Shown one piece after another: positions 4,623-26,535 of a stretch of 64,000 bases of DNA. The notes beneath the pieces are model-generated. The model saw only the letters and a list, made by a program, of their open reading frames with translations. It ran no database searches and was not told the DNA's origin. Source of the DNA: Gammaproteobacteria bacterium (lineage in GTDB: Bacteria > Pseudomonadota > Gammaproteobacteria > Steroidobacterales > Steroidobacteraceae); NCBI GenBank assembly GCA_021323735.1, contig JAJPKM010000006.1:62001-126000 (forward strand), written 5' to 3'. The position numbers and the translations under genes are program-made. Position 1 is the stretch's first letter, and every line of letters begins with the position of its first letter.

Positions 4623-4651
4623 GCATGCGTCTCTTACCCAAGGAACCCATC

Positions 4652-5923: not shown

Positions 5924-5924
5924 C

Positions 5925-6000: not shown

Positions 6001-6024
6001 TCAACCCGCCCTCGTGAGGCCACC

Positions 6025-6732: not shown

Positions 6733-6741
6733 GAGTCCGCC

Positions 6742-8061
6742 ATGTTCGGCTACTACTTCAAGTTGGCGCTGGGCAGCCTCAGGCGCAATGCCGTGCTCAC
6801 GGCGCTGATGATCGCCGCCATCGGTGTGGGCATCGGTGCCCTGATGACCACCTTGACGGTATTTCGCGCCATGGCGGCGGATCCGATTCCGTCCAAGTCC
6901 CGGCAACTCTTTGCCGTGCAAATCGATAACTGGGGGCCGAAGAAGGGAGTGTCGCCCGGCGACAAGGACAACCTGCAAGTACAGCTCAGCTACATCGATG
7001 CCATGGGGCTCATGAATGCGAACGCCGCGCACCGGCAGACGGTCATGTATGTAACCGGATTCGCGCTGACGCCCGTGAATCCCGACCTGCGGCCGTTTCA
7101 GGTGCAGGCGCGTGCGGCGTACGCGGATTTCTTCTGGATGTTCAATGCGCCCTTTCGTTACGGCGGCCCTTGGAGCGCTGCGGACGACAGCGGCCATGCG
7201 GATGTGGTGGTGATTGGAAACGAGCTGAACGAGAAGGTCTTCGGCGGGGCGAATTCCGTCGGCAAGACCATTGATCTCGATGACCATGAGTATCGCATCG
7301 TCGGCGTACTGGACCGCTGGCAGCCGACGCCGAAATACTTTGACCTCAACGGTAACACCTACGGCACCCCGGAGGATGCATTCATTCCCTTCACGCGGGC
7401 CATCGATCAGCAGATGGCTTCGTGGGGCAATACCAATTGCCCGAGCGGCGGAGGTCCCTCGGGATGGGACGCGCGATTGCAGTCCGAATGCATTTGGATG
7501 CAGTTCTGGGTGGAGTTGCCGACACCGGCCGATGCCGCGCGCTATCGCGCCTTCTTGAACAACTACGCCGCGGAGCAACAGCGCTCGGGCCGGTTTTCCT
7601 GGCCACCCAATACCCGGCTGCGCGATGTGCGCGAATGGCTGGTTTATCAGCACGCCGTCGACGACGGCGTGAGAATTCTCGTGCTGGTGTCGTTCAGTTT
7701 TCTCCTGGTCTGCTTGCTCAATGCCATGGGGTTGATGCTCGCCAAGATCATGGGACGCGTCGCGGACATCGGCGTGCGCCGTGCCTTAGGTGCGAATCGG
7801 CGGGCGATTTTCAGCCAGTGCCTGATCGAGGCGAGTGTGGTGGGCCTCGCCGGTGGTTTGCTGGGGTTGCTGCTCACCGCGCTGGGGCTCTTGGGTCTGC
7901 GTTCATTGTTGTCGGAGGACGTCGGCAGGCTGACCCACTTCAGTCCGGCCGATGTCATCATCGCAGTGACGTTGTCGATCGCGGCAACCACTCTCGCGGG
8001 ACTCTATCCGACCTGGCGCGCCGCGCAGGTTCAACCGGCTTGGCAGTTGAAGTCTCAATAG
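6742..8061 (+). CDS. FtsX/MacB-type ABC permease, pair 1 subunit A
   Basis: A 439-residue inner-membrane permease. One membrane helix at about 16-40 is followed by a large periplasmic MacB-type domain (about 45-295) and three C-terminal helices (about 310-335, 360-385, 405-425). The coupling segment between helices 2 and 3, KIMGRVADIGVRRALGANR, is the FtsX hallmark that contacts the ATPase. AGGAG at 6731-6735 precedes ATG 6742. It is the first of three A-type subunits (6742, 9308, 11869), each followed by a B-type subunit. Pairs 1 and 2 look most alike. Three to nine bases separate it from the next gene depending on the start chosen there. Confidence 0.92.
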   Translation: MFGYYFKLALGSLRRNAVLTALMIAAIGVGIGALMTTLTVFRAMAADPIPSKSRQLFAVQIDNWGPKKGVSPGDKDNLQVQLSYIDAMGLMNANAAHRQTVMYVTGFALTPVNPDLRPFQVQARAAYADFFWMFNAPFRYGGPWSAADDSGHADVVVIGNELNEKVFGGANSVGKTIDLDDHEYRIVGVLDRWQPTPKYFDLNGNTYGTPEDAFIPFTRAIDQQMASWGNTNCPSGGGPSGWDARLQSECIWMQFWVELPTPADAARYRAFLNNYAAEQQRSGRFSWPPNTRLRDVREWLVYQHAVDDGVRILVLVSFSFLLVCLLNAMGLMLAKIMGRVADIGVRRALGANRRAIFSQCLIEASVVGLAGGLLGLLLTALGLLGLRSLLSEDVGRLTHFSPADVIIAVTLSIAATTLAGLYPTWRAAQVQPAWQLKSQ

Positions 8062-8070
8062 GCGGTGAGC

Positions 8071-9294
8071 ATGGAACTGGGTCCAATCATCTCGGCGATG
8101 CGTCGCAATAAAGTGGGCGCCATCGTGGTCGGCGTACAGATGGCGATCACCCTGGCGATTCTGTGCAACGCGCTGTTCATCATCGAGCAGCGGGTCGCGC
8201 TCGGCAAAAGACCCACCGGTACCGATGAGGCAAACATCGTCGTGATCACCAATCAGTGGGCGGGCCATCCGACCGATCTGGCGGCCAAGCTGCAGGGGGA
8301 TTTGGCGGCGCTACGCTCGATGCCGGGTGTGGTGGATGCTTTTGCCAGCAATACCTATCCCCTGAGCAACGGTGGCTCGAGTTTGAATCTCAAGCTCAAT
8401 CCTGAGCAACGCGAATCGACGGCGCAGACCGCCTTGTACATCGCGGACGAGCATGGTCTTCAGACTCTGGGACTGAAGCTGATCGCCGGCCGAAATTTCA
8501 CCGCCGACGAAGTGCTGGACAGAATGCCCGGCACCAATGTCCCACCATCGGCCGTCATCGTCACACGAGCCTTGGCCGAAAAGCTGTTTCCCGGCAAAAA
8601 CGCGGCGGGACAGTCCGTGTACAGCGAATACCAAAAGACGCTGGCGCCCATCGTCGGCGTCGTGGACAAGCTGCAGGTGCCGTGGACGCAGGCCGGCGGT
8701 TTCGGCAGCAAATTCAACGACAGCTCGCTGCTCGAGCCCTACCGCCATGAGGCCCCGTACGGCTACTACTTGGTGCATGCACAACCGGGACAGGCCGTTG
8801 CGGTGATGAAGGCGGCGGAAAAGAGGCTGATCGAGGTAAACCGGGCGCGAGTATTGCAAAAGAGCCAGACGCTTACCGAGGCACGCGCCGAGGCCTATAA
8901 GGACGACCGCGGACTGGTGATCATTCTCGGCGTGGTTTGCGCCGCTCTCGTGGCCGTCACGGCATTCGGCATCGTGGGGTTGACGAGCTACTGGGTGGCG
9001 CAGCGTCGGCGCCAGATCGGCATCCGCCGGGCCTTGGGTGCGACGCGTACCGCCATCATTCGCTATTTCCAAACCGAAAACTTCCTGATCGCGGCGGTGG
9101 GATCCATCGGCGGCATCGGTTTGGCGCTTTCATTGAATCTGTGGATGGTCACCGCCTTCGAAATGGAACGCCTGGACACCCGCTATGCCTTGATCGGCGC
9201 CGTCTTCGTGCTGCTGCTGGGGCAGCTGGCCGTGCTGTGGCCGGCACTGAAAGCCGCATCCATTCCGCCCGCGCTGGCGACGCGGGCTGCCTGA
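8071..9294 (+). CDS. FtsX/MacB-type ABC permease, pair 1 subunit B
   Basis: A 407-residue permease with the same topology as subunit A but a shorter periplasmic domain: helix 1 at about 14-36, periplasmic MacB-type domain to about 275, then three helices. The coupling motif is SYWVAQRRRQIGIRRALGATR-like (VAQRRRQIGIRRALGATR). I start it at ATG 8071 (MELGPIISAMRRNK) because the B subunits of pairs 2 and 3 begin with MEL at the matching place; an in-frame GTG at 8065 is possible. A and B probably form a heterodimer around one ATPase dimer. The last 57 bases (9238-9294) are nearly identical to 11794-11850 in the second B gene. Confidence 0.9.
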   Translation: MELGPIISAMRRNKVGAIVVGVQMAITLAILCNALFIIEQRVALGKRPTGTDEANIVVITNQWAGHPTDLAAKLQGDLAALRSMPGVVDAFASNTYPLSNGGSSLNLKLNPEQRESTAQTALYIADEHGLQTLGLKLIAGRNFTADEVLDRMPGTNVPPSAVIVTRALAEKLFPGKNAAGQSVYSEYQKTLAPIVGVVDKLQVPWTQAGGFGSKFNDSSLLEPYRHEAPYGYYLVHAQPGQAVAVMKAAEKRLIEVNRARVLQKSQTLTEARAEAYKDDRGLVIILGVVCAALVAVTAFGIVGLTSYWVAQRRRQIGIRRALGATRTAIIRYFQTENFLIAAVGSIGGIGLALSLNLWMVTAFEMERLDTRYALIGAVFVLLLGQLAVLWPALKAASIPPALATRAA

Positions 9295-9307
9295 TGGGAG
9301 ATCCACC

Positions 9308-10627
9308 ATGTTTAGCTATTATCTGAACCTCGCCCTACGCAGCCTCAAACGCAATGTGGTGCTCACGATGTTGATGATCGCCGCCATCGGCGTCGGTATC
9401 GGCGCTTCGATGACCACGTTGACAATATTTCGCGCCATGGCTGCCGACCCCATCCCGAACAAGTCGCGGCAGTTGTTCGCGGTGCAGATCGACAATTGGG
9501 GTCCGTCGAAAAGCGGGGTGCAAACACCGGATGACAAGCTGCAACAGCAAGTCAGTTATACCGACGCCATGGGACTCATGAATGCCCATGCGGCGCTTCG
9601 TCAGACGGTGATGTACAGCACCGGATTTGCGCTGTCTCCGCCCAATCCGAATCTACGGCCATTTCAGGTCCCGGCTCGCGCGACCTACATGGATTTCTTC
9701 CCCATGTTCGAGGTACCGTTTCGATTCGGAACTCCCTGGACCCGTGAGGATGACGAAGGACGCGCACCCGTTGCGGTGATTTCGCGCGAACTCAACGACA
9801 AGGTTTTCGGCGGCGCGAATTCCGTCGGCAAGACGCTGAATCTCGACAAGCACGATTATCGCGTGGTGGGTGTGCTCGATCGCTGGCAACCCGTACCGAA
9901 ATTCTATGATCTTAACAACAACCAGTACGGAGAAATCGAGCAGGCATTCATCCCCTTCACGCGCGCCATCGAGAACCAGATGACGACCTGGGGTAACAAC
10001 AATTGCAGCCGCGATGCCGTGGCGCCAGGATGGGAGGGGCATCTGCATTCCGAATGCGTTTGGTTCCAGTTCTGGGCCGAGCTTCCCACCGCCGCCGATG
10101 CCGAGCGCTACCGCTACGTACTGAACAACTATGCCGCCGAGCAGCAGCGCCTGGGACGCTTCCACTGGGCTGCACACACTCGCCTGCGCGACGTACGCGA
10201 GTGGCTGGCCGATCAGCATGTCGTCACCGACGAAGCGCGCATCCTGGTGCTGGTGTCGTTCAGTTTCCTTCTGGTCTGTCTGTTGAATGCCATGGGCCTG
10301 ATGCTGGCCAAGATCATGGGACGAGCCGGGGACATCGGCGTGCGTCGTGCGCTTGGCGCCAATCGCCGCGCCATCTTCGGTCAATGCCTGATCGAGGCGG
10401 GGGTGATCGGATTTGCGGGTGGACTCGTGGGGCTGGCATTGACGGCGGCCGGCCTCCTGGGTCTGCGTGCGCTGTTGTCGGAACAGACCACCCGCCTGAC
10501 TCATCTGGGTTTCTGGGAGGTCGGTATCACGGTAGGGACAGCCGTCATAGCGACTACATTGGCGGGGCTGTACCCCACGTGGCGCGCCGCCCACATTCAA
10601 CCCGCTTGGCAACTCAAAGCTCAGTAG
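9308..10627 (+). CDS. FtsX/MacB-type ABC permease, pair 2 subunit A
   Basis: A 439-residue paralogue of the protein at 6742, identical in length and collinear throughout (for example both carry FRAMAADPIP, KSRQLFAVQIDNWGP and RRALGANRRAIF). Topology is the same: one N-terminal helix, a large periplasmic domain and three C-terminal helices with the GRAGDIGVRRALGANR coupling segment. GGGAG ahead of ATG 9308 serves as ribosome binding site. Differences cluster in the periplasmic domain (for example KSGVQTPDDKLQQ against KKGVSPGDKDNLQ), which is where substrate or adaptor specificity would be expected to diverge after duplication. Confidence 0.92.
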   Translation: MFSYYLNLALRSLKRNVVLTMLMIAAIGVGIGASMTTLTIFRAMAADPIPNKSRQLFAVQIDNWGPSKSGVQTPDDKLQQQVSYTDAMGLMNAHAALRQTVMYSTGFALSPPNPNLRPFQVPARATYMDFFPMFEVPFRFGTPWTREDDEGRAPVAVISRELNDKVFGGANSVGKTLNLDKHDYRVVGVLDRWQPVPKFYDLNNNQYGEIEQAFIPFTRAIENQMTTWGNNNCSRDAVAPGWEGHLHSECVWFQFWAELPTAADAERYRYVLNNYAAEQQRLGRFHWAAHTRLRDVREWLADQHVVTDEARILVLVSFSFLLVCLLNAMGLMLAKIMGRAGDIGVRRALGANRRAIFGQCLIEAGVIGFAGGLVGLALTAAGLLGLRALLSEQTTRLTHLGFWEVGITVGTAVIATTLAGLYPTWRAAHIQPAWQLKAQ

Positions 10628-10635
10628 GAAATGCC

Positions 10636-11850
10636 ATGGAACTAGTTCCCATACTCTCCGCCATGCGCCGCAATAAAGTCGGCGCCATCATCATTGTGGT
10701 GCAAATGGCGGTCACGCTTGCCATCCTATGCAACGCGCTATTCATCATCGAGCAGCGCATCGCCTGGAGCGAACGTCCGACGGGGGCGGATGAGCGCAAT
10801 GTTTTCGTCATTATCAATCAGTGGGTAGGCGATCCTACGAACCTCCCTGCGCTCCTACAGGCGGATCTCGCCGGGTTGCGCGCCCTGCCTGGCGTGATCG
10901 ACGCATTCGCCAGTAATTCCTTCCTTTTGAGCAACGGTGGATGGAGCTATGGGGTCGATCTGATGCCCGATCAAAAAGAGTCTACGGCCCAGGCCGCGCG
11001 GTACTTCACGGACGAACATGGCTTGCAATCACTGGGGCTCAAGTTGATCGCAGGTCGCAATTTCAACGCGGACGAAATCGCCGATTTGTTCGGTGTCAAC
11101 GACCAGACACCGGCCGTGTCCGTGATCATCACCAAGGCGCTGGCAGAGAAGCTGTTCCCGGGCAAGAGCGCATTGGGTCAATCCGTCTGGATCGCAAACC
11201 ACGCCGCCAACATCATCGGCATCGTCGACCGGCTGCAGGTGCCCTGGGTGGACCCCTCGGTCGCGAAGTTCAGCGACTATTCGATCCTCGAGCCGTTTCG
11301 GTACGTCGCGTCGGGCTTGTACTACATCGTGCGCACTCAACCGGGTCAGCTCGAGGCGGTTTTGAAGGCGGCGGAGAAAGAGCTTTTCGATCTCAATCGC
11401 GAGCGAGTGCTGGGAAAATCCCGGTCGCTCACCGAGGCGCGAGTCGAGGCCTATAAGGACGATCGGGGCCTCGCCGTGATTCTCGGTGTGGTCTGCGCGG
11501 CGCTGCTCGTGATCACCGCATTCGGCATCGTCGGGCTGACCAGCTATTGGGTGGCGCAGCGCCGCCGCCAGATCGGCATCCGCCGTGCACTCGGCGCCAC
11601 CCGGCATGCCATCGTCCGATACTTTCAGACGGAGAATCTGCTCATCGCGGGTGCCGGCGCGGCCATCGGTGTTGCCTTGGCGCTGTCGTTGAATCTGTGG
11701 ATGGTCAACGCCTTTGCGATGCAGCGGCTGCATGGCAGCTACCCCCTCGTCGGTGCCATCGTGGTGCTTATCCTGGGGCAGGCGGCTGTGCTTTGGCCGG
11801 CACTCAAAGCCGCATCCATTCCGCCCGAGCTGGCGACGCGGGCTGCTTGA
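10636..11850 (+). CDS. FtsX/MacB-type ABC permease, pair 2 subunit B
   Basis: A 404-residue B-type permease. The frame stays open far upstream (to 10003), but ATG 10636 is the right start: it gives MELVPILSAMRRNK, matching the other B subunits, and TAGGAA lies just before it. One N-terminal helix, a periplasmic domain and three C-terminal helices with the VAQRRRQIGIRRALGATR coupling motif. The carboxyl end (ALKAASIPPELATRAA) is almost the same as in pair 1, including at DNA level, so recombination or gene conversion between copies is plausible. Confidence 0.91.
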   Translation: MELVPILSAMRRNKVGAIIIVVQMAVTLAILCNALFIIEQRIAWSERPTGADERNVFVIINQWVGDPTNLPALLQADLAGLRALPGVIDAFASNSFLLSNGGWSYGVDLMPDQKESTAQAARYFTDEHGLQSLGLKLIAGRNFNADEIADLFGVNDQTPAVSVIITKALAEKLFPGKSALGQSVWIANHAANIIGIVDRLQVPWVDPSVAKFSDYSILEPFRYVASGLYYIVRTQPGQLEAVLKAAEKELFDLNRERVLGKSRSLTEARVEAYKDDRGLAVILGVVCAALLVITAFGIVGLTSYWVAQRRRQIGIRRALGATRHAIVRYFQTENLLIAGAGAAIGVALALSLNLWMVNAFAMQRLHGSYPLVGAIVVLILGQAAVLWPALKAASIPPELATRAA

Positions 11851-11868
11851 CGTAGGCGGGAGCAGGAA

Positions 11869-13182
11869 GTGTTCGGCTACTATTGTCGTCTGGGTTTACG
11901 CAGCCTGAAGCGCAACATGGTATTGACGGCGCTGATGATTGCCGCCATTGCCGTCGGCATAGGCGCCTGCATGACCACCCTCACGGTATTTCGGGCCATG
12001 TCGGGCGACCCCATTCCGCAGAAGTCCAGCCGCCTGTTCTCGGTGCAGATCGACAACTGGGGTCCGGACAAACACGCCGGTGGCGGCGCGGATCACCTGG
12101 AGTTTCAGTTGAGCTACATCGACGCCATGGGACTGATGAGGGCGCGTGCCGCCAAACACCAAAGCGCCATGTATGCAACGCGCCTGCCCCTGCGCCCGGC
12201 GGATGCGCGGCAAAAGCCGACCAAGGTATTCGTGCGGGCTGCCTTTACGGATTTCTTCCCGATGTTCGACGTGCCGTTCAAATTCGGCGCTCCGTGGAGC
12301 GCATCGGACGACGAAGCCCGTGCCGCGGTGGTGGTGCTCACCAAGGACACCAACGATCGGCTGTTCGGGGGCGCCAACAGCGTGGGCAAGACCATTCGCC
12401 TCGACAACGAGCCCTATACGATCACCGGTGTGCTGGACGACTGGCGGCTGCTACCGCGCTTCTACGACATCACTCTGCGTCCATTCGGCGACGGCGACGC
12501 GATTTTTCTGCCGTTCAACCGCGCCATCGACAAGCATATGGGCAACGTCGGCAGTACTCAATGCAACGGCGATGCCGACCCGGGCTGGGAAGGGCGTCTG
12601 AAGTCGGACTGCGTGTGGCTGCAATTCTGGGCGGAACTGCCCGGCGAAATCGACGTGCAGAAGTACCGCGCGTTTCTCGATAACTACGCCGCCGAGCAAC
12701 AGAAGATTGGCCGATTTCATTGGCCGCCGCACACCCAATTGCGTGATGTCATGCAATGGCTGCAATACATGAAAATCGTACCGAGCGAGGTGCGCATTCT
12801 GATCTTGGTTTCGTTTGGATTCTTGCTGGTCTGCCTGATGAATGCCATGGGCTTGATGCTGGCGAAGATCATGGGGCGCGCCGCCGATATCGGCGTGCGT
12901 CGTGCGCTGGGGGCGAGCCGCAAGGCCATATTCGGGCAATGCCTGATCGAGACCAGCATGATCGGGCTCGCCGGCGGATTGTTCGGGCTGCTGCTGACGG
13001 CAGCGGGGTTGTGGGCGGCGCGCTCCCTGTTGACCAAGGAGTTCGTGGCGCTGGCCCATCTTGATTGGGCGGATACGGGCATCACGGTGCTGCTGGCCGT
13101 ATCGGCGACGGTGCTGGCGGGGCTGTATCCCACGTGGCGCGCGGCGCATGTGCAGCCGGCCTGGCAACTCAAGACACGGTAG
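11869..13182 (+). CDS. FtsX/MacB-type ABC permease, pair 3 subunit A
   Basis: A 437-residue A-type permease starting at GTG 11869 (MFGYYCRLGLRSLKRN), aligned with the ATG starts of the other two A subunits; a GGGAG lies about 8 bases upstream. It keeps the fold and the GRAADIGVRRALGASR coupling segment, but its periplasmic domain differs more from pairs 1 and 2 (RAMSGDPIPQKSSRLFSVQID, then a distinct RLPLRPADARQKPTKVF stretch). This suggests the third pair is the oldest branch or has been adapted to another partner or substrate. Confidence 0.91.
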   Translation: MFGYYCRLGLRSLKRNMVLTALMIAAIAVGIGACMTTLTVFRAMSGDPIPQKSSRLFSVQIDNWGPDKHAGGGADHLEFQLSYIDAMGLMRARAAKHQSAMYATRLPLRPADARQKPTKVFVRAAFTDFFPMFDVPFKFGAPWSASDDEARAAVVVLTKDTNDRLFGGANSVGKTIRLDNEPYTITGVLDDWRLLPRFYDITLRPFGDGDAIFLPFNRAIDKHMGNVGSTQCNGDADPGWEGRLKSDCVWLQFWAELPGEIDVQKYRAFLDNYAAEQQKIGRFHWPPHTQLRDVMQWLQYMKIVPSEVRILILVSFGFLLVCLMNAMGLMLAKIMGRAADIGVRRALGASRKAIFGQCLIETSMIGLAGGLFGLLLTAAGLWAARSLLTKEFVALAHLDWADTGITVLLAVSATVLAGLYPTWRAAHVQPAWQLKTR

Positions 13183-17940: not shown

Positions 17941-18324
17941 TCAGCGCGGCGCGAAGAATTCGGTGTAAACCTGGATGCTGTCCTCGTTGAGCTGCGCCAC
18001 ATCGACCAGTTCCGTCGGGACCGTCACCCCGGTGACCTTGGAGTAGATGTCCGCCCGCCAGTGCGCAACCGCTCGCGGCCATTCCACCGTGAGGCTCAGC
18101 AGTTGATAGTGGGTGATTCTGAAAACCTTGACCATCATCGAGAGCCAAGGCCGAAATTCGGCCACGCCATTCGCGCGAATGGCGATCGACTTGTCGGCGC
18201 TGGCACCCAAGATCTCGAATCGACCATGATTTGCGAAGACGCGGCACATACCGGACAGATCGCCGGCCACCCGGGCCGCATGCAGTTGTTCGATCAATCG
18301 CTGCGCCATGATGCGCTCGGACAC
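17941..18324 (-). CDS. SnoaL-like / NTF2-fold protein
   Basis: A 127-residue small protein with the look of the SnoaL/nuclear-transport-factor-2 fold: an N-terminal helix (AQRLIEQLHAARVAGDLSGMCRVF), then alternating strands (GRFEIL, VEFRPW-like, VAHWRADIYSKVTG). Such proteins serve as small cyclases, isomerases, dehydratases or ligand-binding proteins, often in secondary metabolism. It is the last gene of a minus-strand run: acyl-CoA dehydrogenase-like, carrier-protein ligase, esterase, this gene; it starts 11 bases after the esterase stop. An internal ATG six codons in is an alternative start. Function within the pathway is unknown. Confidence 0.7.
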   Translation of the reverse strand: MSERIMAQRLIEQLHAARVAGDLSGMCRVFANHGRFEILGASADKSIAIRANGVAEFRPWLSMMVKVFRITHYQLLSLTVEWPRAVAHWRADIYSKVTGVTVPTELVDVAQLNEDSIQVYTEFFAPR

Positions 18325-18335
18325 GTTCGTTCTCC

Positions 18336-19283
18336 CTATAGGCGAGGAGCCGGGGTCAGCGCCGCGCGAATTTCACCGCCGATCTGGTCCAACGCGCTAT
18401 GCGCATAGGGAATCACGGCCCCCAACGCATAGAAAAGATGGATCATACCCGGATGGCAAGTGTAGGACACTTCATTGCCCGCTTGGGCCAGGCGCTCGAA
18501 ATAATTCCGTCCCTCATCACGCAACGGATCGAATTCCGCGGTGTGAATCAGGGTCGGCGGCATTCCCGCTAAGTCCGTGGCAAGCAATGGCGACACCAGC
18601 GGATTGCCGGGATTCGTCTGATCATTGGGCAGGTAGTGCATCAGATCATGATCCAGTGTCGCCTGATCGACCAGATAGCCACTCGCGAATTCTCGTTTCG
18701 AAGGTGTTCCGCGGCTGTAGTCGAGAATAGGGCAGATGAGCAGCTGCAAGGCGAGGCGCGGCCTGCCCGCACGAGCCGCCGCCTGGCACGCGACCGCCGC
18801 CAACGTGGCGCCGGCCGAATCGCCGGCGACGCCCAGCCGCTCGTGGTCGATGCCGAAATCCGCAGCGTGCGTGCTGATATGCGCCAAGGCGGCCATCGCA
18901 TCTTCCACCGCGGCGGGAAAGGGGTGCTCGGGCGCCAAGCGGTAGTCCACCGATGCGACGCGCACGTTTCCCGCACAGGCCAGGGCGCGCGCAACGCTGT
19001 CATGCGTGTCCAATGACCCGGCGACCAAGCCGCCGCCATGAAAATAGATCAAGCCGGGAAGCGTTTGCGCGGGCGTCGGCGAATACAAGCGTATTCGCAG
19101 CTCGCCCCCCGGTCCGGCCAGGGTTCGAGTTTCCACCCGATTCACGGCGGCTTCGTTCCCCGCGAATTTCATCAGCGCGATAAGCCCGGCGCGCCGGTCC
19201 GCGACGCTTTGCGCTCGCGCGTCGGGAGGATTGCCTGCGGCCAGGAGGTTCAAGAAACGTGCGACGCGCGGGTCGAGGGGCAT
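18336..19283 (-). CDS. Alpha/beta hydrolase, hormone-sensitive-lipase-type esterase
   Basis: A 315-residue hydrolase of the bacterial HSL family. The oxyanion-hole motif is HGGG (LIYFHGGGLVAGS), the nucleophile serine lies in GDSAGATLA, the acid is probably the Asp in EFDPLRDEG and the base the His in GMIHLFYALG. There is no signal peptide, so it acts in the cytosol. It lies between the amino acid:carrier-protein ligase (13-base gap) and the SnoaL-like gene. In that setting it could release a product from the carrier as a thioesterase-like step or hydrolyse a product ester; that role is inference. Confidence 0.88.
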   Translation of the reverse strand: MPLDPRVARFLNLLAAGNPPDARAQSVADRRAGLIALMKFAGNEAAVNRVETRTLAGPGGELRIRLYSPTPAQTLPGLIYFHGGGLVAGSLDTHDSVARALACAGNVRVASVDYRLAPEHPFPAAVEDAMAALAHISTHAADFGIDHERLGVAGDSAGATLAAVACQAAARAGRPRLALQLLICPILDYSRGTPSKREFASGYLVDQATLDHDLMHYLPNDQTNPGNPLVSPLLATDLAGMPPTLIHTAEFDPLRDEGRNYFERLAQAGNEVSYTCHPGMIHLFYALGAVIPYAHSALDQIGGEIRAALTPAPRL

Positions 19284-19296
19284 CGGCGCCGAGTGA

Positions 19297-20223
19297 TCAG
19301 AGTGCCAGGGCGGACCTGGTCGCCGCCGGCCACTTCTTCAAATCGAGGCCATGGTTCGCAAATAAGGCCACAGCCAATCGGTCGATGCCGAAAGCCACGC
19401 AGCTGGTATGCGCCGGCTCGCCCTGTTCATCACGGATGCCCCATACCTGTCCGAAGTGTTCACGGTGATAGTTGAAGCTCATGCATGCGGTGGGCGCTGC
19501 GCCCTGATAGTAGGGAATCAGCAGTTCGAACTTCAAAGCTTGCTGGCGCTGGCTCACTGCCATGACCTTGCCGACTCGGCCGAAAAAGGGATCGTTGGCC
19601 ACATCCATGGTGTGCGGCAGCCCCAAGTCCGCCGCCATTCGAGGCGCTCTGGCCATCCATTGCTCGCGGAACTGTACGATCTCGTCCGGCGCGCCGATCC
19701 TGACGAATTCGCGCATGCGGAAGGATTGAAGCCGATCGAGGCTCAGTGAAGGTTCATGCCGGAAGACATCGGCTTCGATATCGAACTTGAGGCCGCCGGG
19801 CGGCAGCGCGCCGCGCGCCGCCGCGATCGGATACACCGGATAGCAGGCCGCGGGAGACAACACGAGATCCGAGGAGGTCAGCGAGCTGGTCCAGTCGCCG
19901 CCGTTGTCGTACCGCTCGACCGCCGAGCGAATGGCGGCTTCGGAGCCGTGCAATGCGCACACGCAGCCGAGCAGATTGGGAAAGCTCTTCAAGTACCCGG
20001 ATTTCTCCAGCTGTGTGCGGCTCATCACCGGCGGAAAGCGCAGGACTTCCGCCTGCGGATCGCGCTGGCGCGTGATGTATTGCTCCAGCCGCTCGACCAG
20101 ATCGACGTACAGAGCGGTGCGTGCGTAGACACCCTCGACGCCCATGGGCCGGAAAAGTTGATCGGCAAGATGAGCGACCGGATAGGACATAGAACTGTCG
20201 GGCGGCACGGCCGGATTATCCAC
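19297..20223 (-). CDS. Amino acid:[carrier protein] ligase (SerRS-like, class II synthetase homologue)
   Basis: A 308-residue class II aminoacyl-tRNA-synthetase catalytic core without a tRNA-binding arm, matching the seryl-tRNA-synthetase-like ligases first described in Bradyrhizobium and Agrobacterium. These activate a small amino acid with ATP and load it onto the phosphopantetheine arm of a dedicated carrier. Motif 2 is FRHEPSLSLDRLQSFRMREF (154-173), motif 3 is GIDRLAVALF (279-288), and a Cys-Glu-Cys set (C127, E172, C275) sits where the active-site zinc ligands are expected. GTG at 20221-20223 overlaps the dehydrogenase stop by 8 bases; ATG 20190 is an alternative. The carrier gene is 1.4 kb away. 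The amino-acid substrate (glycine or alanine in known members) is not determinable here. Confidence 0.9.
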   Translation of the reverse strand: MDNPAVPPDSSMSYPVAHLADQLFRPMGVEGVYARTALYVDLVERLEQYITRQRDPQAEVLRFPPVMSRTQLEKSGYLKSFPNLLGCVCALHGSEAAIRSAVERYDNGGDWTSSLTSSDLVLSPAACYPVYPIAAARGALPPGGLKFDIEADVFRHEPSLSLDRLQSFRMREFVRIGAPDEIVQFREQWMARAPRMAADLGLPHTMDVANDPFFGRVGKVMAVSQRQQALKFELLIPYYQGAAPTACMSFNYHREHFGQVWGIRDEQGEPAHTSCVAFGIDRLAVALFANHGLDLKKWPAATRSALAL

Positions 20224-21424
20224 TGATCGAAGCGGGCAGCGGCGTCATCAGCGACGTCGTGGCGAGATTGGTCAGGATGCGGTCGTTGCTGATCATGAGC
20301 GGCGCGGAAAGCACGTCGCGCAGCAGGCGGCCGATGGCAAACTCGGTGTCATTGCGATATCCGGAGAGTCCGCAGGCTCGCATCGAAGCCATCACGGCGG
20401 TCACCGCAAGTTCCGATACCTGTACCTTCGTCAGAGTAATCGTGGCCTGAAATTCCAGGGAAGCGATGGCCTTTTCATCGGAGAGGATGGCCTCGTAGCT
20501 GCGCAAGCCGGACGCCAGCACGCCGCGAAGCGTGCGTAAGGTCGATACGGCCTGGGTGAAGTGGGCGGCGCCGGGCGGCATTTGACCATTCGCTTGGCGT
20601 ACCACGTGGCGCACGAAGGCCTGCGCCTTGGCCACGGCGGCGGCCGCGATTCCCGCCCACACGGAACCCCACAACAGATGCGCGAACGGCACCATGGTTT
20701 GCGCATGAATTCGCTCATAGGGTTCCGGCATGATCTGCCCTGCCGCCGCACGGGCTCGAAGCGTGAAGCCTTCGCTGTGCGTGCCGCGCATCCCCAAGGT
20801 ATCCCACACCTGCAATCGTTCCAAGGTGTAATCCGCCTTCAACAACACCACGAGGACCTGATCGTTGCCCGGCGCGTCGGCGGCACGCCGAGCGGTCGTG
20901 ACGATGCCGTCTGCCTCCACGGCGTAGGAGATGACCGTGGCCTTGCGTTCGAGGGTGATCTGGGCGCCGTCGTGCTCGACGGCGGCCTCGCTGGAGCGCA
21001 CATTGCCGCCGGCCTGGCCTTCGGTGGTGGAGGATGCCATGAGCAGCTGCTCGTCGGCGATTCGCCGCAGGATCCGCTCGAGTGTGGGGTGGTTCTTGAA
21101 GTGGCGCACCATGCACGCCATCTTGATTTGGTGCATCGCATAAATCAGGCCGGTCGAAGAACAGGCTTGGCCGAGGGTGTAGCACGCATCCGCGATCTCC
21201 GCGATCGTGGCGCCTTCACCGTCCAGAGACTGGGGCACCTGGATGCCAAGCAGCCGCTGCTTGCGCAGTTCCGCGAAGGCCTCACTGGGAAAACGCGCTT
21301 CCGCATCGACGGTGGCCGCATGGGCCTTGGCCACATCGGCGGCCGCGCGCGCCCGCGCCGCCATATCGGCTTGCCGTGCGTTGGGAGTTAGGCTTCCCGG
21401 AAGCCGGTGGGTTTCTGTTGCCAT
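20216..21424 (-). CDS. Acyl-CoA dehydrogenase-like flavoprotein
   Basis: A 402-residue protein with the acyl-CoA dehydrogenase fold: helical N-terminal domain (to about 125), a central beta domain around ASSTTEGQAGGNVRSSEAAVE, and a C-terminal helical domain with RACGLSGYRNDTEFAIGRLLRD. The usual substrate-loop consensus in the beta domain (TEP-G-AGSD) is strongly altered, and I cannot place the catalytic glutamate with confidence. The family also includes monooxygenases and N-hydroxylases that lack this base. Its gene is first in the operon and overlaps the carrier-protein ligase by 8 bases, so its substrate may be the aminoacyl group on the carrier rather than an acyl-CoA. Confidence 0.85.
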   Translation of the reverse strand: MATETHRLPGSLTPNARQADMAARARAAADVAKAHAATVDAEARFPSEAFAELRKQRLLGIQVPQSLDGEGATIAEIADACYTLGQACSSTGLIYAMHQIKMACMVRHFKNHPTLERILRRIADEQLLMASSTTEGQAGGNVRSSEAAVEHDGAQITLERKATVISYAVEADGIVTTARRAADAPGNDQVLVVLLKADYTLERLQVWDTLGMRGTHSEGFTLRARAAAGQIMPEPYERIHAQTMVPFAHLLWGSVWAGIAAAAVAKAQAFVRHVVRQANGQMPPGAAHFTQAVSTLRTLRGVLASGLRSYEAILSDEKAIASLEFQATITLTKVQVSELAVTAVMASMRACGLSGYRNDTEFAIGRLLRDVLSAPLMISNDRILTNLATTSLMTPLPASISG

Positions 21425-21617
21425 GTCATCGCCTCGAGGGCCTGGAATTGGTCAATTATGCGGACCTGCTTATGGGGGGACAATGACACGCCGGAGAAAA
21501 TAAAGGTACTTAGTGACGGCTCACTCAGTTCTATAAATATATGTCAAAGCTGCGGCGTATTCCGTATCCTGCGCCACACGGTATCATCGGTGCTGGTTTT
21601 GTCGGGAGAAGAATCGA
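21425..21617. other. Divergent intergenic region between the flavoprotein operon and the carrier-protein gene
   Basis: A 193-base spacer holding the promoters of both arms of the carrier-protein cluster. It contains an AT-rich stretch around 21530-21543 (TTCTATAAATATATG), unusual for this GC-rich window and a candidate -10 region, but I find no convincing -35 partner and no clear operator. On the plus strand GGGAGAAG at 21604-21611 is the ribosome binding site for the carrier gene. Confidence 0.5.
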
Positions 21618-21890
21618 GTGGATTCGCAGGCGAATGAGCGGGTAAGCGACCGGTTGATCACGCTCGTCACGGCGGTTTTGGGGGCAGGAGGCGTCGTTCC
21701 GAAGCCCTTTCCTCTGGAGGCTCAACTCAGCGACTTAGGGATCAGCTCCTTGAAAATGGTCAATTTGATGCTGGCCGTCGAGGTGGAGTTCGATATCGCC
21801 ATCGCCCAAGGGGATATCACCCCCGAGAACTTCCATTCCCTGCAGTCGATTGAGGCCTTGATCGAACGGACCCTGTCGCAGAGATCCTAG
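21618..21890 (+). CDS. Small acyl/aminoacyl carrier protein
   Basis: A 90-residue acidic four-helix carrier protein starting at GTG 21618 behind GGGAGAAG. The phosphopantetheine attachment serine is S44 in DLGISSLKMVNLM, at the start of helix 2, where carriers usually read DSL. It is probably the acceptor for the amino acid activated by the ligase at 19297. It reads away from the ligase operon and is convergent with the PLP decarboxylase. A phosphopantetheinyl transferase is needed from elsewhere in the genome. The spelling SSL instead of DSL fits an atypical, dedicated carrier rather than the fatty-acid ACP. Confidence 0.88.
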   Translation: MDSQANERVSDRLITLVTAVLGAGGVVPKPFPLEAQLSDLGISSLKMVNLMLAVEVEFDIAIAQGDITPENFHSLQSIEALIERTLSQRS

Positions 21891-21951: not shown

Positions 21952-23367
21952 CTAGCTTCGCTCGTTGAGCGCGGCAATCAGCGCATTCACGTCGTCCATC
22001 CCGGTCTCGCCGTGGGTGGCGCAGATGCGCACCACATCCCGGCCTTCGAAAAGCGCGGGAGCCACCCACGCGCGGCCGGAGGCCACCACCCGCCGCACCA
22101 AGTCCCGCGCCGAGCCTAAGTGTGCGGGCGGGATGGCGTTGAGGACGGCCAGCGGTGAATCGTTGGCAATTTCCCAGCCCGAGGCGATCAGCCGCTGTCT
22201 GACACGCTCTATCACTTCCACGCCCCGTTCCACATGCGCGCCCATCCCCGTCCAGCCGGCTGCGGCGAGGGCGAGAAACAAGCGCAGCCCCAGAAATCGC
22301 CGCGACCATTGCACCGTGTTCAAGTAAGGATCCACGCCTGGGATGCTCGAAGGCATGAAGCTGGTCGAGGCATGGAATGCCTCGGATAGCAGCCCGCCGC
22401 GCCCCGTGATGAACATGGCACATCCCATCGTTGTCGCAAACCATTTATGCGCGTCGATGGTCAGTGAATCGGCACGCTCGATGCCGTCGAGCACACTGCG
22501 CAGGCGATTCGAGGCGAGCGCCGCGCCGCCCCAGGCGGCATCCACGTGAAACCACAGTCCTTCCTGCTTGGCGATGTCGGCGCAAGGGTGCAAGGGATCG
22601 ATCATTCCGCCGGCGGTGGTTCCGGCCGTGGCGACCACCATCACGGGAACCGCACCGGCCGCGCGGTCCAGGGCAATGGCCTGTCGCAGGGCCGCAGGGT
22701 CCAACCGTCCGCGGCCGTCGGTGTCGACGAGGCACAGTGCCGCACGTCCGATACCGGCTTGATGCGCGATTTTCAGCCACGCGATGTGGCAGTCGCGCGA
22801 AGTATAGAACCTCACAGGGCCTGCAAAGGCACGCGCGCCTTGGTCCGAGAAATTGGCATGGGCGCCTGTCAGTGCGCAGAGCAGGGCGGTGTAATTCGCC
22901 TCGGAGCCGCCGGTCGCAAAGTGTCCCGTCGCTTCACTGCCCAATCCAGCACGGTGCGCAAGCTTGCTGATCACATGGCTTTCCAGCGCCACCGGCACGG
23001 GAGAAGAGGCTGAACTCGCCAGCTGCGGATTGAAGCACCCCGCGATGCGATCTGCACATTGAGAGGGGAAGTTCGCGCCCGGATTGAACAGCCCGAAGTA
23101 GCGCGGATTCGCCATTTGCACGATGCCGTGCTCCATGCGCTCAATCGTCCAGCGCAGCGCATCCTCGAGCGGCTGCGGCTCGTTGAAATCGAAGCCATTG
23201 AGCTCGGCGCGAAATCTCTGCATATCGAGGTTGGGCGCCACCGGGCCCGCCTGTACCCGCCGCAAGGACTGTTCCAGCTCGAGCTGCAGCCAGCCCCCGA
23301 TCCGGTCGCGGTCAGGGGTCTTCGGGAATAACGCCGGAATCGGATCCGGCAATGATCTCTGATTCAA
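21952..23367 (-). CDS. PLP-dependent group II amino-acid decarboxylase family
   Basis: A 471-residue fold-type I PLP enzyme of the aromatic-L-amino-acid/glutamate decarboxylase group. The PLP lysine lies in TIDAHKWFATT; HVDAAWGG supplies the cofactor-binding aspartate; HFATGGSEANYTALL binds phosphate. It starts with TTG (complement of 23365-23367), overlapping the sulfhydrylase stop as TTGA, so the two are coupled. Substrate is unclear: group II members decarboxylate aromatic amino acids, glutamate, aspartate or cysteine sulfinate, and some catalyse aldehyde synthesis. Next to a carrier-protein pathway it might supply an amine such as beta-alanine or taurine-type products; that is speculation. 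Confidence 0.88.
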   Translation of the reverse strand: MNQRSLPDPIPALFPKTPDRDRIGGWLQLELEQSLRRVQAGPVAPNLDMQRFRAELNGFDFNEPQPLEDALRWTIERMEHGIVQMANPRYFGLFNPGANFPSQCADRIAGCFNPQLASSASSPVPVALESHVISKLAHRAGLGSEATGHFATGGSEANYTALLCALTGAHANFSDQGARAFAGPVRFYTSRDCHIAWLKIAHQAGIGRAALCLVDTDGRGRLDPAALRQAIALDRAAGAVPVMVVATAGTTAGGMIDPLHPCADIAKQEGLWFHVDAAWGGAALASNRLRSVLDGIERADSLTIDAHKWFATTMGCAMFITGRGGLLSEAFHASTSFMPSSIPGVDPYLNTVQWSRRFLGLRLFLALAAAGWTGMGAHVERGVEVIERVRQRLIASGWEIANDSPLAVLNAIPPAHLGSARDLVRRVVASGRAWVAPALFEGRDVVRICATHGETGMDDVNALIAALNERS

Positions 23368-24638
23368 AGCGCGGCGCCGAGTGCTTGATCCAAATCGGCG
23401 AGGATGTCATCGATGTGTTCGATGCCCACGCTCAGTCGAATGCTGCCGGGACCGACGCCGGCTGCGAGTTGCTCCTCCGGGGACATTTGCCGATGCGTCG
23501 TCGATGCGGGATGGCACGCCAGCGACTTCGCATCGCCTAAATTCACCAGTCGCTTGAACAGCTTGAGCGCGTTGTAGAAACGCATGCCCGCCGGCAGCCC
23601 GCCGCGTATCTCGAAGGTCATGAGCGAGCATGCGCGGCCGCCCAGATATTTCTGCACCAAGGCATGGTAGGGATTGTCGGGAAATCCGGCGAAATTCACC
23701 GATTCGACGCGCGCGTCATCGCGCAGGAATTCGGCCACCTTGCGGGCATTGTCCACGTGCCGATCCACCCGCAGAGCCACCGTTTCAATGCCTTGCAGCA
23801 GCAGGAATGCATTCATGGGGGAAAGCACCGCCCCCACCGTGCGTTGATACACGCTGCGGCATCGGCCAATGAAGGCGGAAGCACCAAAATGATCGGTGTA
23901 AACCAATCCGTGATAGGACTCGTCAGGCTCGGTGAACATGGGGTAGCGGGCCGCGTGCGCGATCCATGGAAACCGCCCGCAGTCGACGATGATCCCGCCC
24001 AGCGTAGTGCCGTGGCCGCCCATGAACTTGGTCAAGGAGTGAACGATGACATCGGCGCCATAATCGATGGGCCGAACCAACATCGGCGTCGCCACCGTGT
24101 TGTCGACGATCAAGGGCATACGGTGCCGATGAGCCAGAGCTGCCAGCGCTTCCAAATCGCATACGTTGCCGGCCGGGTTGCCGACGGTTTCGCAAAAGAT
24201 CGCACGGGTATTTTCGTCGATCAGGGCCTCGAGATCGGCGGGCCGGTCGGATTTCGCGAACCGGACCTCGATTCCCATCTTCGGCAAGATGTGGGCGAAC
24301 AAGGTGTAGGTCGTGCCGTAGAGCTGCGGCACGGAGACGAGATTACGGCCCATCTCCAGCGCATTCATCGCGGCGTAGAAGAGCGCCGTTTGTCCCGAAC
24401 TCACGCACAGCGCGCCGATGCCGCCCTCGAGCTCGGTGACCCGCTGCTCGAGAACGTCGGTGGTCGGGTTGCTGATCCGCGAATACCGGTATCCTGGAAC
24501 TTCGAGGTTGAACAAGGCGGCGCCATGCTCGGCGCTGTCGAAGGAATATGCGGCCGTCTGGTATATCGGCACGGCGACTGCCTTGGTGGTGGGGTCCGAA
24601 TCGAAGCCCCCGTGTACGGCGATGGTTTCGCGCTTCAT
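23364..24638 (-). CDS. metY: O-acetylhomoserine sulfhydrylase-like Cys/Met-metabolism PLP enzyme
   Basis: A 424-residue enzyme of the cystathionine-gamma-synthase superfamily, with length and blocks typical of O-acetylhomoserine aminocarboxypropyltransferase: ETIAVHGGFDSDPTTKAVAVPIYQ-like opening, YSRISNPT, the PLP lysine in VHSLTKFMGGHGT, and FIGRCRSVYQRTVGA. The expected reaction joins O-acetylhomoserine with sulfide (or methanethiol) to homocysteine (or methionine). I chose the ATG at 24636-24638 (MKRETIAVHGG); the frame is open to 24710 but the extra residues are not family-like. It heads a two-gene unit with the decarboxylase and is divergent from the acyl-CoA synthetase, 91 bases away. 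Confidence 0.88.
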   Translation of the reverse strand: MKRETIAVHGGFDSDPTTKAVAVPIYQTAAYSFDSAEHGAALFNLEVPGYRYSRISNPTTDVLEQRVTELEGGIGALCVSSGQTALFYAAMNALEMGRNLVSVPQLYGTTYTLFAHILPKMGIEVRFAKSDRPADLEALIDENTRAIFCETVGNPAGNVCDLEALAALAHRHRMPLIVDNTVATPMLVRPIDYGADVIVHSLTKFMGGHGTTLGGIIVDCGRFPWIAHAARYPMFTEPDESYHGLVYTDHFGASAFIGRCRSVYQRTVGAVLSPMNAFLLLQGIETVALRVDRHVDNARKVAEFLRDDARVESVNFAGFPDNPYHALVQKYLGGRACSLMTFEIRGGLPAGMRFYNALKLFKRLVNLGDAKSLACHPASTTHRQMSPEEQLAAGVGPGSIRLSVGIEHIDDILADLDQALGAAL

Positions 24639-24729
24639 CTTGGCAATTTTGGTAGTGAGTTTGTACCAGTGTATATCGAACCTTAAAGTTAGTCGTGGTA
24701 TGGTTCGCAATTCCCCGGATGACGATTAA

Positions 24730-26535
24730 ATGCCCATTTCCGTGACAAAGTCCGGCGACGTCGATTCAAAATTCGCGCGCGACGCCTGGATCCGGGCACT
24801 GGCGAAGACGGCCCCGATCGCCGATCGGGGCGAGACCCTTCCGGAGCTGATTGCGCGTCTGAGCCTGGAATTCGGCGCCGCGCCCGCTCTCCTGTCCGCC
24901 GAAGCCTCCATGACGTACCGGCAGTTGGGGTCGCGGTGCCATCAGTACGCCCGCTGGGGAATTTCACAGGGCATCTTCCGGGGCGATGCCGTCGCGCTGC
25001 TGATGCCTAACTGCGCTGAGTACTTGGCCGTCTGGCTTGGGCTGACGCGTATCGGTGCCGTGGTTGCGCTGGTCAATTCGCAACTGGCCGGGGATGTATT
25101 GGCGCATTCGATCAACATCGTTCAGCCGAAGTTCTTGATCGTCGGTGCGGATCTCGCGCCCCGCATCGCGGCCATCCGCCCACATTTGGACAAGTCGCTT
25201 CAGTGCCGCGTGTTCGGAACGAGCCCGCTCGATATCGCTTCCCTCGGAGCGGAGCTCGCGGCCGTCAGTTCAGCGCCACTGTCTTCATCCGAGCGCGCGG
25301 CGCCTCCTCTCGACGCGACGGCGCTGTATATCTACACCTCGGGCACGACCGGCTTGCCAAAGGCGGCTAAGGTCAGCCATTACCGTCTCATGCAGTGGAC
25401 TCATTGGTTCGCCGGCATGATGGATACGGCGCCCGCCGATCGCATGTTCAATTGCCTACCTCTCTACCACAGCATCGGCGGGGTGGTCGCGACCTTCGCG
25501 ACACTGGTGAGCGGTGGGGCCGTGGTGATCCGCCCGCGCTTCTCGGCGTCCGATTTCTGGCGGGATGTGCGCGATGAGCGCTGTACGCTGTTTCAATACA
25601 TCGGAGAGCTGTGCCGCTACTTGGTCAATTCGCCTCATCGGCCGATCGAGACCGAACATTCGCTGCGTGTGGCGTGCGGCAACGGGTTGCGGGCAGACGT
25701 CTGGGACGCATTCAAGACGCGCTTCAAGATTCCGCGCATCCTCGAATACTACGCGTCGACCGAGGGCAATTTTTCCTTGTACAACTGCGAGGGGCGGCCG
25801 GGTGCCATCGGCCGCATTCCCCCGTTTCTCGCCGGCCGATTGCCCGTGGCGCTGCTGAAGATCGACGTCGACACTTCGGAACCACGGCGCAACGCGCAGG
25901 GATTTTGCGAACGCTGCGCGGCCGATGAGATCGGAGAGGCCGTAGGGCTCATGCCCAAAGCTGATGGGCAGCGCGCGGGTCGATTCGAGGGCTACGCGGA
26001 TCCGGAGGCCTCGCAGCGCAAGGTGCTGCGCAATGTCTTCCAGGAGGGCGATTCGTGGTATCGGACCGGCGATTTGATGCGCCGTGACGAACGCGGGTTT
26101 TATTACTTCGTCGACCGGGTCGGAGATACCTATCGCTGGAAGGGTGAGAATGTTTCGACCGCCGAAGTCTCGACCGCGCTCACGGCATGCCGCGGCGTGA
26201 TCGGTGCCGTCGTTTACGGCCTGGGCGTGCCGGGAGCGGAGGGCCGGGCGGGGGCCGCCGCGCTTCAGGTGAACGATGAATTCGATCTTGCCGCGTTTCG
26301 CGCCGAGGCGGCCTTGCGTCTGCCCCCCTATGCACGGCCACTGTTTCTGCGGATCGTGCCGATGTTCGACGCCACCGCGACCTTCAAGCCGCGCAAGCAG
26401 GCGCTGATCCAGTCGGGGTTCGATCCTAAGCTCATCGACGATCCGCTGTTCTTCGACGATCCCCGGTTGCAGCGCTACGTTGCGCTTGATGCCGCGCTGT
26501 TCGCAGAGATATCGAGCGGTGCGCTGAAGATCTAG
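24730..26535 (+). CDS. FATP-type long-chain acyl-CoA synthetase
   Basis: A 601-residue AMP-forming ligase. The ATP/AMP signature is YIYTSGTTGLPKAAKVSH, and the EYYASTEGNFSLYNCEGRPGAIGR block is diagnostic of the fatty-acid-transport-protein/very-long-chain acyl-CoA synthetase branch (FadD6-like), as are WYRTGDLMRRDERGFYYFVDR and RWKGENVSTAEV near the C-terminus. It should activate a long or bulky carboxylic acid with ATP and CoA. It is divergent from metY and convergent with the histidine kinase. It may belong functionally to the carrier-protein cluster (acyl donor) or to lipid metabolism in general. Confidence 0.9.
   Translation: MPISVTKSGDVDSKFARDAWIRALAKTAPIADRGETLPELIARLSLEFGAAPALLSAEASMTYRQLGSRCHQYARWGISQGIFRGDAVALLMPNCAEYLAVWLGLTRIGAVVALVNSQLAGDVLAHSINIVQPKFLIVGADLAPRIAAIRPHLDKSLQCRVFGTSPLDIASLGAELAAVSSAPLSSSERAAPPLDATALYIYTSGTTGLPKAAKVSHYRLMQWTHWFAGMMDTAPADRMFNCLPLYHSIGGVVATFATLVSGGAVVIRPRFSASDFWRDVRDERCTLFQYIGELCRYLVNSPHRPIETEHSLRVACGNGLRADVWDAFKTRFKIPRILEYYASTEGNFSLYNCEGRPGAIGRIPPFLAGRLPVALLKIDVDTSEPRRNAQGFCERCAADEIGEAVGLMPKADGQRAGRFEGYADPEASQRKVLRNVFQEGDSWYRTGDLMRRDERGFYYFVDRVGDTYRWKGENVSTAEVSTALTACRGVIGAVVYGLGVPGAEGRAGAAALQVNDEFDLAAFRAEAALRLPPYARPLFLRIVPMFDATATFKPRKQALIQSGFDPKLIDDPLFFDDPRLQRYVALDAALFAEISSGALKI

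What the first reader, a model, noticed from the sequence alone, without database searches (positions are those of the whole stretch)
19297..21890. Orphan amino acid:carrier-protein ligase system with a flavoprotein partner
A tRNA-synthetase-like ligase (motifs 2 and 3 intact, Cys-Glu-Cys at C127/E172/C275) is coupled to an acyl-CoA dehydrogenase-like flavoprotein whose substrate-loop consensus is altered, with a dedicated carrier (S44) transcribed divergently. The ligase family is known to load glycine or alanine onto such carriers, but the fate of the loaded amino acid is, as far as I know, unresolved. The 8-base overlap of the flavoprotein and ligase genes suggests oxidation (dehydrogenation or N-oxidation) of the carrier-bound amino acid. 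No NRPS or PKS module is present, so this would be a minimal free-standing pathway.
Basis: partly seen in the sequence, partly recalled or inferred. Interest (0 to 1): 0.9.

Follow-up and report, generated by a model that had tools for sequence, protein, structure and literature searches.

The report
Carrier-bound amino acid oxidation gene cluster
A tRNA-synthetase relative probably loads a small amino acid onto a carrier protein, and its constant flavoprotein partner most likely adds oxygen to that amino acid; in this bacterium the three genes sit inside a larger cluster that looks like an undescribed biosynthetic pathway.

Summary
The genes are real and at the stated coordinates. The ligase (19297-20223) scores over the cut-off of the amino acid:[carrier protein] ligase family, matches the solved B. 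japonicum enzyme over 297 residues and keeps all zinc ligands. The flavoprotein (20216-21424) stood beside the ligase in 109 of 109 strong-ligase loci read, the carrier (21618-21890) in 105 (some loci are repeats). The pathway is not minimal: in the window's relatives the triple lies in a conserved cluster with an O-acetylhomoserine sulfhydrylase, PLP decarboxylase, alpha/beta-hydrolase, SnoaL protein, acyl-CoA synthetase and often a MetA-like enzyme and a second carrier/adenylase/reductase set. And plain dehydrogenation is unlikely: both known catalytic-glutamate sites of acyl-CoA dehydrogenases lack Glu in the 54 homologues that could be read there, and FAD-binding motifs are lost. The best precedent is ChmG of chalkophomycin biosynthesis (2024), a Glu-less relative that N-oxygenates carrier-bound proline beside a carrier, adenylase and hydrolase. 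I favour N-oxygenation of carrier-bound Gly/Ala. Monooxygenation was already predicted in print in 2010 for related operons; the gene cluster around this branch and the active-site evidence are what is added here.

The parts
19297..20223 (-). amino acid:[carrier protein] ligase (class II SerRS-like), Zn ligands C127/E172/C275
   Evidence: NF005479 3.6e-136 over cut-off; Bll0957 structure match; residues
20216..21424 (-). acyl-CoA-dehydrogenase-fold flavoprotein without the catalytic Glu; proposed N-oxygenase
21618..21890 (+). dedicated carrier protein, phosphopantetheine site S44, divergent
   Evidence: PF00550 1.3e-6; A3
18336..19283 (-). HSL-type alpha/beta-hydrolase (HGGG, GDSAG, D, H motifs present); proposed release enzyme, 13 bases after the ligase
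   Evidence: PF07859 7.3e-69; motifs; in 22 of 24 loci of the window's group
17941..18324 (-). SnoaL-like protein, 11 bases after the hydrolase
   Evidence: PF12680 2e-6; 21 of 24 loci
21952..23367 (-). PLP group II decarboxylase, Lys308 in DAHKW
   Evidence: PF00282 1.5e-53; at 70% identity or more only in ligase-bearing genomes of the genus, 8 of 9 against 0 of 14
23364..24710 (-). O-acetylhomoserine sulfhydrylase-like PLP enzyme, 4-base overlap with the decarboxylase
   Evidence: TIGR01326 over cut-off
24730..26535 (+). acyl-CoA synthetase, divergent, 19 bases from the sulfhydrylase
   Evidence: NF006134 over cut-off; 7 of 8 long-flank loci

Best explanation
A thiotemplated amino-acid-oxidation module inside a larger cluster. 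(1) The SerRS-like ligase activates a small amino acid (Gly or Ala by family precedent) as its adenylate and loads it on the dedicated carrier at S44 (inferred from close homology to characterised enzymes). (2) The Glu-less acyl-CoA-dehydrogenase-fold flavoprotein oxygenates the carrier-bound amino acid, most likely on nitrogen, giving an N-hydroxy (or more oxidised) aminoacyl thioester (inferred from residues, fold and the ChmG precedent). (3) In this lineage the adjoining alpha/beta-hydrolase releases or transfers the product; Bradyrhizobium-type loci have a GNAT-like protein and class I loci a DUF1839 protein near the ligase instead (presence shown, role inferred). (4) The sulfhydrylase (with a MetA-like partner in many relatives), decarboxylase, acyl-CoA synthetase and, in many relatives, a second carrier/adenylase/reductase set make or attach the partner moiety (membership shown, chemistry unknown).
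For: Flavoprotein on the ligase's strand in 109 of 109 strong-ligase loci, carrier found in 105, and 0 of 10 weak-ligase loci has the flavoprotein. In 55 hand-picked rows of both classes the MCAD Glu376 site is Ile (53) or Val (1) with 1 gap, the IVD Glu254 site is Ala 35, Ser 16, Cys, Gly or Thr 1 each and 1 gap, the Phe of RxxFG is absent from 55 of 55, and the second Gly of QxxGG is Leu/Ile/Met in 54 with 1 gap (motif names and site numbers recalled). Four ordinary dehydrogenases of the same genome (those of 8 fetched loci that matched the family profile) have a Glu at one of the two sites and largely keep the motifs. Foldseek of the model: 7 of the first 11 hits are TdsC/DszC, KijD3, DnmZ or another nitrososynthase. 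ChmG, with Met for the Glu and KijD3 as structural relative, N-oxygenates ACP-bound proline; alpha/beta-hydrolase ChmF releases the final product and adenylase ChmK reloads it (PMC11177257, section 7 read, other passages seen). bll0957 and the next locus tag bll0958 (acd) both show a 3.0-fold change in a B. diazoefficiens phaR mutant (PMC10888616, table passage).
Against: No flavin reductase gene was recognised among the window genes scanned, as a two-component oxygenase would want. By sequence the best hits are dehydrogenases, with oxygenases mixed among them. Among the 50 Foldseek rows shown TMq overlaps: oxygenases 0.74-0.80, dehydrogenases 0.72-0.76, with similar E-values. The model has pLDDT below 50 at 135-141, 207-216 and 378-386, which includes the Ile378 region. 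One of 55 rows keeps the Gln of QxxGG. The substrate was not tested. ChmF did little on the N-hydroxyprolyl intermediates themselves.
Confidence: 0.5

Rival explanations
1. The flavoprotein is still a dehydrogenase/oxidase: it oxidises carrier-bound Gly/Ala to an imine (then glyoxylyl or pyruvyl), with another residue such as the invariant His98 or His249 as base.
For: Best sequence matches are dehydrogenases; His98 and His249 in 54 of 54 rows with a letter; prolyl-carrier dehydrogenases are among the weaker hits (RedW model; 4irn).
Against: Both known Glu positions and the FAD motifs are lost; the pyrrole-forming enzymes AnaB and Bmp3 need the Glu (PMC11177257).
Confidence: 0.2
2. Cell-surface aminoacylation: the (oxidised) amino acid is transferred to an amino sugar of a surface polysaccharide, as Iyer et al. 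proposed in 2010 for the related operons; the window's version is a variant of this.
For: DUF1839 and a GH2-like protein in 16 of 16 class I loci and 0 of 86 others; WcaJ- or Wzc-type genes near 6 of 16 class I loci and 3 of 6 of the other unnamed class II loci; in the own genome an F21-F20 pair lies beside a WcaJ-type gene.
Against: No sugar enzyme among the cluster genes of the window; WcaJ-type gene near 2 of 24 loci of the window's group (L004, L008) and 0 of 56 Bradyrhizobium-type loci.
Confidence: 0.2
3. The sulfhydrylase, MetA and acyl-CoA synthetase are ordinary metabolic neighbours; only carrier, ligase, flavoprotein and perhaps hydrolase form the pathway.
For: In 47 Bradyrhizobium-type loci with long flanks the sulfhydrylase is near only 6; MetA and sulfhydrylase are methionine genes elsewhere (recalled); the own genome has no MetA.
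Against: 8 of 8 long-flank loci of the window's group carry sulfhydrylase, decarboxylase, hydrolase, SnoaL, F21 and F20; 0 of 14 class I loci carry any of them; sulfhydrylase and MetA also occur together in 3 of 5 other class II loci; the decarboxylase tracks the ligase within the genus, 8 of 9 against 0 of 14 genomes.
Confidence: 0.25
4. Oxygenation occurs on carbon or on a different tethered group (DszC-like), not on nitrogen.
For: TdsC and DszC rank first and second by fold.
Against: Gly/Ala offer few such sites (inference); ChmG and KijD3 are N-oxygenases.
Confidence: 0.15

Closest known systems
Amino acid:[carrier protein] ligase Bll0957, B. japonicum (PDB 3mey and others)
   Same: Near full-length match, catalytic and Zn residues, similar helix after DPFFG, same flavoprotein and divergent carrier beside the ligase in Bradyrhizobium loci
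   Different: The window's version lies in a larger cluster; the GNAT-like F4 of Bradyrhizobium is absent (0 of 24)
StRS-ACP-redox operons with an uncharacterised protein and a glycosidase (Iyer et al. 2010, PMC2922099, passage)
   Same: Ligase, carrier and a redox enzyme; monooxygenation of the aminoacyl group already proposed
   Different: No DUF1839 or GH2 protein in class II loci (0 of 86); ligases of the two classes fall on two sides of one branch (98/91)
ChmI/ChmJ/ChmG/ChmF of chalkophomycin biosynthesis (PMC11177257)
   Same: Free-standing carrier, adenylating enzyme, Glu-less ACAD-fold flavoprotein, alpha/beta-hydrolase, and a further adenylase (in 9 of 24 loci of the window's group, 8 of 8 with long flanks)
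   Different: Adenylating enzyme of another fold (inference); proline; a second, Glu-bearing dehydrogenase (ChmH); feeds an NRPS
Valanimycin VlmD/H/R/L/A (VlmL/A in PMC2922099, VlmH/R in PMC11705231, passages; VlmD and the fold of VlmH recalled)
   Same: Amine from decarboxylation, flavin N-hydroxylase, SerRS relative
   Different: tRNA, not a carrier protein, is charged; dedicated flavin reductase

Membership tests
Amino acid:[carrier protein] ligase (NF005479) | Score over curated cut-off | tested here: met
   453.3 vs 357 bits
Amino acid:[carrier protein] ligase (NF005479) | Zn ligands Cys-Glu-Cys and motif 2/3 Arg; catalytic core without tRNA-binding domain | tested here: met
   308 aa, matches only the C-terminal core (residues 305-503) of a type-2 SerRS
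Amino acid:[carrier protein] ligase (NF005479) | Loads Gly/Ala on its cognate carrier | not testable with these tools
   needs an assay
Acyl-CoA dehydrogenase (true dehydrogenase) | Catalytic Glu at the MCAD-376 or IVD-254 position | tested here: not met
   Ile378 and Ala248
Acyl-CoA dehydrogenase (true dehydrogenase) | RxxFG and QxxGG FAD motifs | tested here: not met
ACAD-fold flavin N-oxygenases (KijD3, DnmZ, ChmG) | ACAD fold without the catalytic Glu | tested here: met
ACAD-fold flavin N-oxygenases (KijD3, DnmZ, ChmG) | Structure clearly nearer to N-oxygenases than to dehydrogenases | tested here: inconclusive
   oxygenases rank first but scores overlap
ACAD-fold flavin N-oxygenases (KijD3, DnmZ, ChmG) | Reduced-flavin/O2-dependent N-oxygenation | not testable with these tools
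   needs an assay
DUF1839-linked operons (Iyer 2010 type) | DUF1839 and glycosidase neighbours | tested here: not met
   0 of 86 non-class-I loci; not among the window genes scanned

The most novel reading that the evidence does not exclude
A tRNA-synthetase-derived ligase, a discrete carrier and an ACAD-fold oxygenase form a general module for making N-oxygenated glycine or alanine on a carrier, and in the window's lineage this module feeds an undescribed pathway that joins it to a homoserine-derived, decarboxylated partner, in many relatives through a second carrier/adenylase set.
Probability: 0.3. Interest if true: 0.82.

Novelty: new variant of a known kind. Interest (0 to 1): 0.6.

Why it matters
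The fate of amino acids loaded by this ligase family was described as unknown in a 2022 review (PMC9437257, passage seen). A strictly conserved, Glu-less flavoprotein with a biochemical precedent turns that question into one mass-spectrometry experiment with three small proteins, and the larger cluster gives a parts list for the final product.

Tried and rejected
Dehydrogenation as first reading: put down because of the residue survey, kept as a rival. Housekeeping role of the sulfhydrylase: the own genome has other, distant paralogues (31-37% identity); 5 ligase-free genomes have a 58-60% homologue and one a partial 48% match; the form at 81% or more is in 6 of 9 ligase-bearing and 0 of 14 ligase-free genomes. 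Of the other three ligase-bearing genomes, G021 has a 59% homologue, G020 and G008 nothing above 41%; in all three the ligase locus meets a contig end, so the cluster copy may be missing there. MetA in the own genome: not found, so the source of O-acylhomoserine here is unknown. F21/F20/F24/MetA in the window: no match; a 57-60% F21 and a 66% F20 lie on another contig, F24 was not found there. Valanimycin-like azoxy chemistry: considered for decarboxylase + oxygenase + SerRS relative, but a carrier replaces tRNA and Bradyrhizobium-type loci lack the decarboxylase (0 of 47). In the phaR table metZ (bll1105) is listed too; not used, its link is untested. Literature for a described class II cluster: the listings showed none in the held library. 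The 2010 PNAS paper was not held and the 2013 Structure paper was not tried, so their remarks on gene neighbourhood are unseen.
Full report
What is there. The three genes are as described. On the minus strand the order is sulfhydrylase-like (24710-23364), decarboxylase (23367-21952, 4-base overlap), then flavoprotein (21424-20216), ligase (20223-19297, 8-base overlap), alpha/beta-hydrolase (13 bases on) and SnoaL-like (11 bases on); the carrier runs divergently in between and an acyl-CoA synthetase divergently outside.

The ligase. NF005479 score 453 against a cut-off of 357, match to Bll0957 over residues 11-307, Zn ligands and motif residues kept in 109 of 109 strong homologues. The helix after DPFFG reads RVGKVMAVSQRQQ in the window; the commonest class II form is RVGQMKAVSQKQQ (50 of 93 rows end it with QLKFE), class I rows read RAGKMLANNQRDQ (3 of 16) or similar. 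The two PDB sequences shown differ just there, and I recall, from no call, that this helix recognises the carrier.

Conservation. Genus search: 9 of 23 genomes have a match, 8 over the cut-off. Phylum sample: 44 of 398 genomes, 28 over the cut-off. In the 80 loci the flavoprotein is on the ligase's strand in 80 and the carrier is found in 78 (L005 and L011 are cut short upstream); in 29 strong-ligase loci the numbers are 29 and 27 (none found in L150, L151); in 10 weak-ligase loci the flavoprotein is in 0.

Two classes. Class I (16 loci): carrier on the ligase's strand, DUF1839 and GH2-like protein in 16 of 16 and in 0 of 86 others; its ligases lie on one side of a branch with support 98/91, though the tool warns of long branches; in the quick flavoprotein tree class I needs two changes rather than one, with the 45-residue fragment L131 in it. 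This is very probably the operon that Iyer and colleagues noted in 2010, where they predicted that the redox enzyme modifies the aminoacyl moiety 'probably via monoxygenation' (PMC2922099, passages seen). They call the enzyme a Rossmann-fold monooxygenase/dehydrogenase, which I take to be this flavoprotein; I did not test that their Atu2574 is the DUF1839 protein. DUF1839 was classed as papain-like in 2023 (PMC10318531, passages).

The larger cluster. 24 loci form the window's group; most are titled Gammaproteobacteria, but the group includes records titled Proteobacteria, Betaproteobacteria (L024) and Acidimicrobiaceae (L005). Eight (L006, L008, L012, L016, L020, L024, L033, L050) have at least 7 kb upstream and 5 kb downstream of the ligase. 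In those: SnoaL, hydrolase, decarboxylase, sulfhydrylase, F21 (adenylase) and F20 (SDR) 8 of 8, acyl-CoA synthetase 7 of 8, MetA-like 5 of 8, F24 (second carrier) 5 of 8; over all 24 in the same order: 21, 22, 18, 13, 9, 9, 11, 15, 6 (short contigs explain part of the lower counts; identity thresholds were mine). Among 14 class I loci with the same flanks each of these is 0. In 47 Bradyrhizobium-type loci with these flanks the GNAT-like F4 is in 47, the sulfhydrylase and MetA in 6, the hydrolase in 5, the decarboxylase and SnoaL in 0. L149 unites acyl-CoA synthetase, sulfhydrylase, MetA, F4, F24, F21 and F20 around the triple. Within the genus the decarboxylase at 70% or more is in 8 of 9 ligase-bearing and 0 of 14 other genomes. 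In the window itself MetA, F24, F21 and F20 are absent.

The flavoprotein. It belongs to the ACAD superfamily: PF02771 over its cut-off, PF02770 below, PF00441 marginal, and no NCBIfam model of a specific family reaches its cut-off. Alignment with four ordinary dehydrogenases of the same genome (L167, L168, L170, L171; the four of eight fetched loci that matched the family profile) shows their YEGT Glu (two) or their ER Glu (two) opposite Ile378 and Ala248 of the window protein, and the loss of RxxFG and QxxGG. Over 55 rows of both classes neither site holds Glu in the 54 that can be read there; one row keeps the Gln of QxxGG. The AlphaFold model (pLDDT 83, pTM 0.85) ranks TdsC, DszC, KijD3 and DnmZ among its first hits, but dehydrogenases follow closely and the TM-scores overlap; the stretches 135-141, 207-216 and 378-386 are poorly modelled. 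Sequence searches rank dehydrogenases first. Taken together: not a standard dehydrogenase, probably an oxygenase.

Precedent. ChmG, annotated as an acyl-CoA dehydrogenase, has Met in place of the Glu, resembles KijD3, and N-oxygenates ACP-tethered proline outside an assembly line; its neighbours are a carrier, an adenylase, a hydrolase that frees the finished product and an adenylase that reloads it (PMC11177257, section 7 read in full, other passages). The window's group has the same kinds of parts, with a tRNA-synthetase relative in place of the adenylase. This is a likeness in logic, not homology of the whole.

Expression. In B. diazoefficiens bll0957 and bll0958 (acd) both show a fold change of 3.0 (second column log2 2.5 and 1.7) in a phaR mutant at 0.5% O2 (PMC10888616, table passage only). 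That bll0958 is the flavoprotein follows from the adjoining locus tag and name; I did not compare its sequence.

What stays open: substrate, position of oxygen, flavin source, the partner moiety and the end product.

Noticed in passing
window 33213-35801 (+): A protein with the C-terminal domain of phosphatidylglycerol lysyltransferase (PF09924), MprF-like, lies about 7 kb beyond the acyl-CoA synthetase; not one of the conserved neighbours.
   Followed up: no
window 3264-13182 (+): An outer membrane efflux protein and a HlyD-like protein followed by four MacB/FtsX-type permease genes (6742, 8065, 9308, 11869), an unusually repeated exporter set.
   Followed up: no
L149 (whole) and L161:9966-12018: F24-F21-F20 (small carrier, AMP ligase, FabG-like SDR) forms a block of its own, beside the cluster in many genomes; in the window's genome an F21-F20 pair is on another contig beside a WcaJ-type gene.
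   Followed up: partly
L152-L160, L166: A divergent set of ligase homologues (26-34% identity to the window's) keeps the Zn ligands but has Thr (8) or Ser (2) for Arg169 and no flavoprotein beside it in 10 of 10 loci.
   Followed up: partly
Bradyrhizobium-type loci among L021-L081: Families F7 and F8, which I read as methionine-salvage mtnP and mtnA (labels recalled; only F7 was scanned, PF01048), adjoin the carrier in 20 and 19 of the 23 such loci clustered; possibly chance synteny.
   Followed up: no
G003 (L162 and L163): One genome of the window's genus carries both a class I and a class II locus.
   Followed up: no
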